Shown here: piece by piece, positions 13,538-54,219 of the stretch
Position numbering within the stretch: position 1 is the first letter of the stretch
Layout of the letters: every line of letters begins with the position of its first letter
Source: Luteimonas terricola
GTDB lineage: Bacteria > Pseudomonadota > Gammaproteobacteria > Xanthomonadales > Xanthomonadaceae
Direction of reading: 5' to 3'
Assembly: GCF_004352845.1 (NCBI RefSeq)
Contig: NZ_SJRX01000008.1
Coordinates: forward strand, 62,001 to 126,000
Length of the DNA stretch: 64,000 bases
The notes under the pieces: model-generated
Database searches by the model: none
What the model was told of the DNA's origin: nothing
The model's input: the letters and a program-made list of their open reading frames with translations, nothing else
Position numbers and translations under genes: made by a program

Positions 13538-13566
13538 AAGCCGCGCCTCCGGGCGCGGCTTTCTTT
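13538..13566 (+). terminator. rho-independent terminator of ftsH
   Basis: A perfect 10-bp stem, AAGCCGCGCC / GGCGCGGCTT, with a TCCG tetraloop is followed by TCTTT. Its position about 50 bp after the ftsH stop and the following T-rich run fit intrinsic termination of the rlmE-ftsH transcript. Confidence 0.8.
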
Positions 13567-13647
13567 CGGTTCATCTCCCAACTCCGGGGGAACGGTTTCG
13601 ACGACGGGTGTCTGCTTCTTTCGCTACGCCTTGCCGTGACCTGGAGG

Positions 13648-13756
13648 GCCCCGCCGCGGCCGGGAGGCCTTCGCGGCTCATGTCCCCCGGCATCCGCCTG
13701 GCGGCGGATGCCTCCTCCTTTACTTCCCCGCGAAGGCCTCCCGGCCACGGCGGGGC
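13648..13756. repeat. structured repeat A (ftsH-folP gap)
   Basis: A 109-bp element with an outer stem of 29 bp (13648-13676 with 13728-13756, one mismatch) encloses a perfect 10-bp hairpin (13689-13698 with 13703-13712, loop TGGC). Between the stems lie the unpaired strands CTCATGTCCCCC (from 13677) and TCCTCCTTTACTTC (from 13713). The same two interior-loop strands occur in inverse orientation in the element at 13821-13922, where both stems have different sequences. No reading frame of note is present. Confidence 0.8.
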
Positions 13757-13820
13757 TCGGCTTCGGCTGGAGTGCGCACGACCCCCGGCTTTTTGCTCCC
13801 GGGCCCCCGCGTACTGCTGC

Positions 13821-13922
13821 GCACCGGGTGCCAGGGCCCTTGAGAGCGAAGTAAAGGAGGAGGCGCTGGCCGCAGGCCAGCGCCGGGGGACATGAGCACT
13901 CAAGGGCCCTGGCACCCGGCGC
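13821..13922. repeat. structured repeat B (ftsH-folP gap), opposite orientation
   Basis: The outer stem is 24 bp (13821-13844 with 13899-13922, one mismatch) around a perfect 10-bp hairpin (13862-13871 with 13875-13884, loop GCA). Read on the minus strand, its interior-loop strands are GCTCATGTCCCCC and TCCTCCTTTACTTC, identical to repeat A, while both stem sequences differ from A. Architecture and inner stem length are therefore conserved by compensating changes. Confidence 0.8.
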
Positions 13923-13978
13923 CCGAGAGTATCAATGCCGCGCCATTCCCATTCCGGAGTCCGGGTTACGGGCGATAA

Positions 13979-54023: not shown

Positions 54024-54219
54024 CCCCTCTGTCCTTTTGCCTGAGAGTTCGGGACGGGCGCGAGCCGCGTCACATGCACCTTCGGCGCCGGGTTTGACCG
54101 GTCTCTCCAGAGTTTTCCCCGCCGGCGGTACGTGGGCCTGAGCGATTACGGGCGTTGCGCCTTCGGCAGCCGTCCCGGTGGACCGGGGCGGCTTCTCCCG
54201 CTGGAGGGTCTTGCCCCGC
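54024..54219 (-). promoter_or_regulatory. tandem glycine riboswitch of gcvP
   Basis: Read on the minus strand, two aptamers follow one another. The first has GGGAGAAGCC, then CCGAAGGCGCAACGCC and TCAGGC; the second has CTGGAGAGACCGG, CGCCGAAGGTGC and CTCTCAGGCAAAAGGACAGAG. These are the GGAGA, CCGAAGG and TCAGGC elements of glycine riboswitches in the standard tandem order. It lies about 50 bp upstream of the gcvP start. In this class, glycine binding normally turns on expression of the cleavage system. Confidence 0.92.

What the first reader, a model, noticed from the sequence alone, without database searches (positions are those of the whole stretch)
13648..13922. Two structured repeats with conserved interior loops but fully changed stems
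Seen directly: repeats A (13648-13756) and B (13821-13922, opposite orientation) share exactly the loop strands GCTCATGTCCCCC and TCCTCCTTTACTTC, and both have a long outer stem plus a perfect 10-bp inner hairpin. The stem sequences differ almost completely. Compensated stems with fixed unpaired sequences are the signature of selection on a folded nucleic acid, as RNA or as a single-stranded DNA substrate. It is not a classical REP, and no known riboswitch or ribozyme core was recognised. Two copies in one intergenic gap suggest a mobile or recurrent family.
Basis: seen in the sequence. Interest (0 to 1): 0.72.

Follow-up and report, generated by a model that had tools for sequence, protein, structure and literature searches.

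The report
Mobile folded-strand hairpin pair
Two big hairpins between two genes belong to a widespread, apparently undescribed family of small mobile elements whose stems change freely while a built-in core stays almost fixed, which points to selection on one folded single strand (DNA or RNA) whose job is still unknown.

Summary
Units A and B form one small transposon-like element (MITE) behind the ftsH terminator; the genome holds 88 model hits. Stems here are near-constant (a recent burst), but across Xanthomonadaceae and betaproteobacterial lineages they are rewritten with compensation: 415 double-change cells against 119 shuffled.

Three results show what is selected. (1) Stem mismatches are A·C rather than G·T in the C-rich sense (233:44; 184:11 in 12 further genomes), so the folded strand is the G-rich one; in the window's own genome this bias is weak (45:35). 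(2) The "loops" are not unpaired: they form a purine core with covarying pairs. (3) The inner hairpin is capped by C-GNA-G in 119 of 217 distinct hairpins (background 4 of 1140), a cap known as exceptionally stable in DNA.

The module rides in MITEs with at least two kinds of end; in Luteimonas these match an ISL3-family element. No RAYT-type gene was found in the three highest-copy relatives, and no Rfam family reaches its threshold. I favour a single-stranded-DNA module; RNA is the close rival.

The parts
13568..13950 (.). the whole MITE copy in the ftsH-folP gap; right terminal repeat lost, so the right edge is where homology to other copies ends
   Evidence: alignment of 20 A-B pairs of this genome, row L058; edges read by eye
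13540..13567 (+). ftsH terminator hairpin and T-rich tract into which the element is inserted
   Evidence: sequence by eye; same place holds another family element in G003 and is empty in G018
13568..13581 (+). left terminal inverted repeat GGTTCATCTCCCAA
   Evidence: matches the ends of an ISL3-family element in G002
13648..13755 (-). unit A; the folded (G-rich) strand is the minus strand
   Evidence: model hit; strand from mismatch asymmetry
13676..13688 (-). core strand of unit A (3' strand GGGGGACATGAGC in the G-rich sense)
   Evidence: core pairs
13689..13712 (-). inner hairpin of unit A, cap C-GCCA-G (GNNA) in the G-rich sense
13713..13726 (-). core strand of unit A (5' strand GAAGTAAAGGAGGA in the G-rich sense)
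   Evidence: core pairs
13819..13925 (+). unit B; the folded (G-rich) strand is the plus strand
   Evidence: model hit; strand from mismatch asymmetry
13848..13861 (+). core strand of unit B, GAAGTAAAGGAGGA
   Evidence: core pairs
13862..13884 (+). inner hairpin of unit B, cap C-GCA-G (GNA)
13885..13897 (+). core strand of unit B, GGGGGACATGAGC
   Evidence: core pairs

Best explanation
The two repeats are the two halves of one MITE. Each half carries a structured module that works as a folded single strand of its G-rich side: outer stem, a compact purine core of non-canonical pairs (GAAGTAAAGGAGGA facing GGGGGACATGA), and an inner hairpin capped by a GNA loop. I think the folded strand is most likely single-stranded DNA, exposed during replication or strand processing and bound at the core by a protein not yet identified. 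The two modules lie in opposite orientation, so each DNA strand offers one competent hairpin whichever way the element lands. Shown: the family, its spread, the structure, the folded strand, the core covariation. Inferred: DNA rather than RNA, the bound protein, and movement in Luteimonas in trans by an ISL3-family transposase into T-tracts of terminators.
For: Stem covariation: 88.4% paired cells vs 54.3% shuffled, 415 double changes vs 119. Strand: A·C 233 vs G·T 44 in the C-rich sense, 104 units to 8 with 18 ties, 184:11 and 12 of 12 genomes in a later set. Core: A-U 235 to G-C 16; G·G 237 to A·U 18; A·G 233 to G·A 12. Cap C-GNA-G in 104 of 181 and 15 of 36 distinct hairpins, GNRA 4 and 0, UNCG 0 and 0, background 4 of 1140; GNA and GNNA mini-hairpins are described as extraordinarily stable DNA. 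All 47 close pairs in 80 loci convergent. Carrier: terminal repeats and exact 8-9-nt duplications in L045, L048, L091, ISL3 element with the same ends.
Against: G·T at about a tenth of stem cells and isosteric core changes are as natural, or more so, for RNA. The asymmetry is weak in the window's own genome (45:35). Only for unit A does the G-rich strand fold better than the other; for unit B it is slightly worse. The second core covariation (G·G to A·U) did not recur in the 54 parsed units of the later set. No binding protein or neighbour gene was found. G000 itself has no ISL3 hit, and the other full ISL3 hit, in G003, lacks these ends. The RNA-hairpin baseline in these loci is only 9 terminators.
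Confidence: 0.5

Rival explanations
1. The module works as RNA: transcripts that run through the element fold the G-rich unit on the exit side, where it binds a host factor or ligand and protects, processes or conditions the mRNA end, so that insertions behind genes are tolerated. One unit per direction serves transcripts from either side.
For: G·U-type wobble frequent and A·C rare on one strand; core pairs change as isosteric RNA pairs would; placement next to gene ends, few between divergent genes, 6 of 54 against 44 of 214 background.
Against: Caps are C-GNA-G, with GNRA 4 of 181 and 0 of 36 and no UNCG, unlike usual RNA caps (recalled); no Rfam family at threshold; no transcript data were available; the placement bias is mild.
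Confidence: 0.4
2. Passive MITE: the palindromes are by-products of transposon ends and of template-switch repair, without selection on a fold.
For: Long near-perfect stems; a burst of near-identical copies in this genome.
Against: It predicts equal A·C and G·T, no fixed core and no cap preference; found 184:11, a nearly invariant core over 256 distinct units, C-GNA-G caps.
Confidence: 0.05
3. REPIN-like element moved by a RAYT (Y1) transposase on single-stranded DNA.
For: Inverted pairs of hairpins, intergenic, many copies, one strand folded.
Against: No Y1_Tnp match in G000, G036, G051, the three relatives with most pattern hits (76, 40, 23), though the search rings in E. coli; G003, G018, G044, G061 have one match each. 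Luteimonas copies have terminal repeats and target duplications.
Confidence: 0.04

Closest known systems
MITEs with ISL3-family ends
   Same: Short, no gene recognised inside, terminal inverted repeats matching an ISL3-family element, T-tract target with about 8-nt duplication
   Different: Carries two conserved strand-specific folded modules; the same modules occur between other kinds of ends elsewhere
REPIN / REP with RAYT
   Same: Inverted hairpin pairs, intergenic, high copy number, likely ssDNA-level fold
   Different: About 105-nt units with a non-canonical core and rewritten stems; no Y1 gene in the highest-copy genomes
GNA / GNNA DNA mini-hairpins, d(GCGAAGC) type (PMC4686876, passages)
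   Same: Inner cap C-GNA-G or GNNA on G-C stems
   Different: Here only the cap of a much larger module
Burkholderiales-1 motif of Weinberg et al. 2010 (PMC2864571, table passages)
   Same: Candidate structured motif of Burkholderiales without an Rfam number
   Different: Unknown: its consensus is in a supplement that could not be read
Integron attC sites
   Same: Strand-specific folded DNA with variable stems (recalled)
   Different: No conserved recombination boxes at the stem base; that part is among the most variable

Membership tests
MITE (ISL3 type), Luteimonas elements | terminal inverted repeats of an autonomous IS | tested here: met
   GGTTCWTCTCCCAA at both ends of better-kept copies; ISL3-family element in G002 with the same ends, 1 and 0 mismatches in 14. 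The window copy lacks the right repeat
MITE (ISL3 type), Luteimonas elements | target-site duplication | tested here: met
   exact 8-9 nt in L045, L048, L091; 15 of 23 repeat pairs by a lax rule that homopolymer flanks favour; none for the window copy
MITE (ISL3 type), Luteimonas elements | cognate transposase in the same genome | tested here: not met
   no PF01610 match in G000; trans movement is inferred from a relative
REPIN/RAYT | RAYT (Y1_Tnp) gene in the genome | tested here: not met
   0 in G000, G036, G051; 1 each in G003, G018, G044, G061
REPIN/RAYT | two hairpins in inverted orientation | tested here: met
   47 of 47 close pairs; but G235 has four units without a detected mate
Rfam family (riboswitch, ribozyme, sRNA) | match at the family's gathering score | tested here: not met
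   window: only glycine riboswitches elsewhere; 8 beta loci at E up to 5: one weak mir-B6 match over a unit in L101, 39 bits against a threshold of 89, both strands
Intrinsic terminator | hairpin followed by a T-run | tested here: not met
   no T-run after either outer stem in the window; the terminator is the separate ftsH hairpin before the element
Integron attC | conserved boxes at the base of the folded site | tested here: not met
   stem-base columns are highly variable in A1 and A2
Burkholderiales-1 motif | published consensus | not testable with these tools
   only a table line is in the text

The most novel reading that the evidence does not exclude
A previously undescribed class of natural functional single-stranded DNA: a chromosomal, mobile, strand-specific DNA fold with its own non-canonical core, kept for long evolutionary times while its stems are rewritten, and carried as cargo between unrelated MITE ends because a conserved cellular partner recognises it.
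Probability: 0.4. Interest if true: 0.87.

Novelty: new variant of a known kind. Interest (0 to 1): 0.74.

Why it matters
Small bacterial repeats are often treated as passive debris. Here one module keeps a nearly invariant folded core over 256 distinct units while stems and element ends change, so something in the cell probably recognises it. The folded strand can be read from sequence alone and can be made as DNA and as RNA, so 'functional ssDNA or RNA' becomes a direct bench question. If DNA, it adds to the few known natural ssDNA folds; if RNA, it is a new structured RNA class that travels in MITEs.

Tried and rejected
Translation signal: AAAGGAGG and ATG on the G-rich strand suggested a start site, but open frames behind the ATG (median 40 codons, 101 cases) are no longer than in the +2 frame (median 43); rejected.

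Kissing of left and right units through their complementary core strands: variants in mates do not coincide beyond chance except at column 114 (39 of 47 concordant, expected 25.8) and weakly at 119 (p 0.048); rejected as a general rule. Left and right stems are no more alike (0.40) than random units (0.43).

RAYT as mover: not found in G000, G036, G051. Recurrent neighbour gene: several shared-protein clusters (largest 13 loci) appeared within 4 kb; I did not annotate them and none stood out beside the units. A gapped pattern with wrong spacing gave 0 hits and was replaced. Autonomous partner of the G121/G122 ends: not seen in 30 of the listed pattern sites of two draft genomes; no target duplication recognised there. 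Phages, plasmids (blastn of the window element) and viral contigs (pattern): no match. Papers holding the core strings: 1 and 10 listed, none on bacteria by title. Structure prediction, protein-family and solved-structure tools were not used.

Full report
What is there. The window is part of a 3.04-Mb genome of 20 contigs. Its genus is inferred: G003 is 'same genus' and its contig C5 has the length (267,753) of a Luteimonas padinae contig. GCTCATGTCCCCC is present 80 times, control 0, and a covariance model finds 88 units. I fetched 55 stretches covering all 80 motif sites; 48 of the 80 lie in 24 convergent pairs, and 20 pairs with enough flank aligned as one element. Nearly all A stems are alike and nearly all B stems alike, with a few exceptions, so this is mostly a burst of one element.

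The carrier. In better-kept copies the element begins with GGTTCATCTCCCAA and ends with its inverse, about 340-415 bp in this genome (one of 232); flanks are mostly T- or A-rich, with exact 8-9-nt duplications in L045, L048 and L091, and 15 of 23 repeat pairs by a lax rule. Two full ISL3 transposase hits were found in 12 genomes: the one in G002 sits in a 1309-bp element with the same terminal repeat (1 and 0 mismatches in 14) and T-tract flanks; the one in G003 does not; G000 has none. Movement in trans by such an enzyme is therefore an inference. In the ftsH-folP gap a family element with other stems sits behind the same terminator in G003 (L222), and the site is empty in G018 (L220). The window copy has lost its right repeat.

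The family. Copy numbers were 2 to 113 in 10 such genomes. Thirteen of 36 genomes, one per genus, in the family of G235 carry units; with stricter filters 3 of 185 genomes of the class, the window's included; 7 of 120 relatives, own genome included, by a strict pattern. G235 has four units without a detected mate, so the pair is usual but not obligatory. All 47 close pairs in the 80 loci are convergent in the C-rich sense, gaps 37-141, 41 of 47 within 40-60.

Covariation. On 40 units (38 chosen of 81 below 70% left-stem identity, plus the window's two) 88.4% of cells pair (54.3% shuffled; 39-48% when slid), with 415 double-change cells (119 shuffled); all 24 outer, both middle and 6 of 7 inner pairs change on both sides. 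The search patterns forced part of the core, but the 130 model hits include mates not chosen by them, and columns outside the scan pattern are equally fixed (A115 129, T118 127 of 130).

Which strand folds. In the C-rich sense mismatches are A·C/C·A 233 against G·T/T·G 44 in outer stems and 39:7 in inner ones; in a 39-unit subset 73:21 and 10:0. Over both stems 104 units lean this way, 8 the other, 18 tie. On the other strand these are G·T or G·U. An ungapped count on 38 units gives 78:16. In 72 units from 12 genomes fetched later it is 184:11, 66 units to 1 with 5 ties, and 12 of 12 genomes agree; these were found with the same model, so the independence is of genomes, not of method. In the window's own genome the bias is weak, 45:35 over 51 distinct units, which I read as recent, little-filtered copies. 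Folding energies do not decide it: for unit A the G-rich strand folds better, for unit B slightly worse.

The core. In the G-rich sense 256 distinct units of 280 read 5' GC-GAAGUAAAGGAGGA and 3' GGGGGACAUGA-GC. Facing positions change together: A9-U11 235 to G-C 16; G16·G6 237 to A·U 18 with one intermediate; A17·G5 233 to G·A 12 and A·A 8; G5-C15 232 to C-G 15; G7·A13 with A8·G12 stands as a tandem G·A. The variants occur in many different loci, but independent events were not counted on a tree. In the later set 9-11 (A-T 40, G-C 11, C-G 3) and 17-5 (A·G 41, G·A 10, A·A 3) vary likewise; 16-6 does not (G·G 53, A·G 1); 18 of 72 units were not parsed.

DNA or RNA. The inner stem varies from 3 to 13 bp, yet its loop in the G-rich sense is C-GNA-G in 104 of 181 distinct hairpins (GNA with any closing pair 109; GNRA 4; UNCG 0; 246 of 280 units parsed) and in 15 of 36 in the later set (GNRA 0, UNCG 0). 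Among 1140 other perfect hairpins in the same loci it is 4; true terminators there were only 9, too few for an RNA baseline. GNA and GNNA mini-hairpins with G-C pairs are described as extraordinarily stable DNA (PMC4686876, passages); that the RNA form is far less stable is recalled, not seen. I take the cap as pointing to DNA and the wobble frequency as pointing to RNA, and weigh DNA slightly higher.

Context. Of 83 elements, 54 had classifiable neighbours by a simple GC-frame gene caller: 15 between convergent, 33 codirectional, 6 divergent genes; 20 were at an edge and 9 overlapped a called frame. Background pairs in the same loci: 41, 129, 44 of 214. This is at most a mild avoidance of promoters; I ran no significance test. 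No neighbour gene stood out.

Ends elsewhere. A Rubrivivax MAG (G121) and an unclassified Pseudomonadota MAG (G122) share elements of 337 and 327 bp with terminal repeat near CGGCCCGTTGCGGCCGTTCG. In Sulfurisoma (G126) and Ca. Nitricoxidireducens (G123) many copies show an ATGAAAC-type sequence outside the stems, seen by eye. So the module rides between at least two, perhaps three, kinds of end, which argues that it is not just the binding site of one transposase.

What is known. No Rfam family reaches its gathering score at the site; in 8 other loci at E up to 5 one weak miRNA-model match lies over a unit, 39 bits against a threshold of 89. Paper searches (listings seen) and passages of PMC2864571, PMC10969869, PMC2817692, PMC4686876 and PMC10527192 gave no description. 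The table of PMC2864571 lists 'Burkholderiales-1' without an Rfam number; its consensus is in a supplement that I could not read, so prior description there cannot be excluded.

Noticed in passing
window 54027-54210 (-): Tandem glycine riboswitch aptamers (Rfam RF00504, 50 and 44 bits).
   Followed up: no
L098 1438-1631: Two xanthine riboswitch aptamers (RF03054) on opposite strands about 80 bases apart in a Hydrogenophaga MAG, within 1.3 kb of a unit pair.
   Followed up: no
L133 1055-2118: Units in an array-like run with a period of about 500 bases in a Burkholderiales MAG, unlike the usual pairs.
   Followed up: no
G000 contig ends: By my count, about 21 of 40 contig ends of the window's assembly lie in or next to this element; it breaks the assembly.
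   Followed up: partly
L222 and L220 (ftsH-folP gap in G003 and G018): The terminator of ftsH carries a different family element in G003 and none in G018: an insertion hotspot or a fast-changing old insertion.
   Followed up: partly
L286 1467-2776: ISL3-family element of a Luteimonas relative with the MITE's terminal repeats and T-tract flanks.
   Followed up: yes
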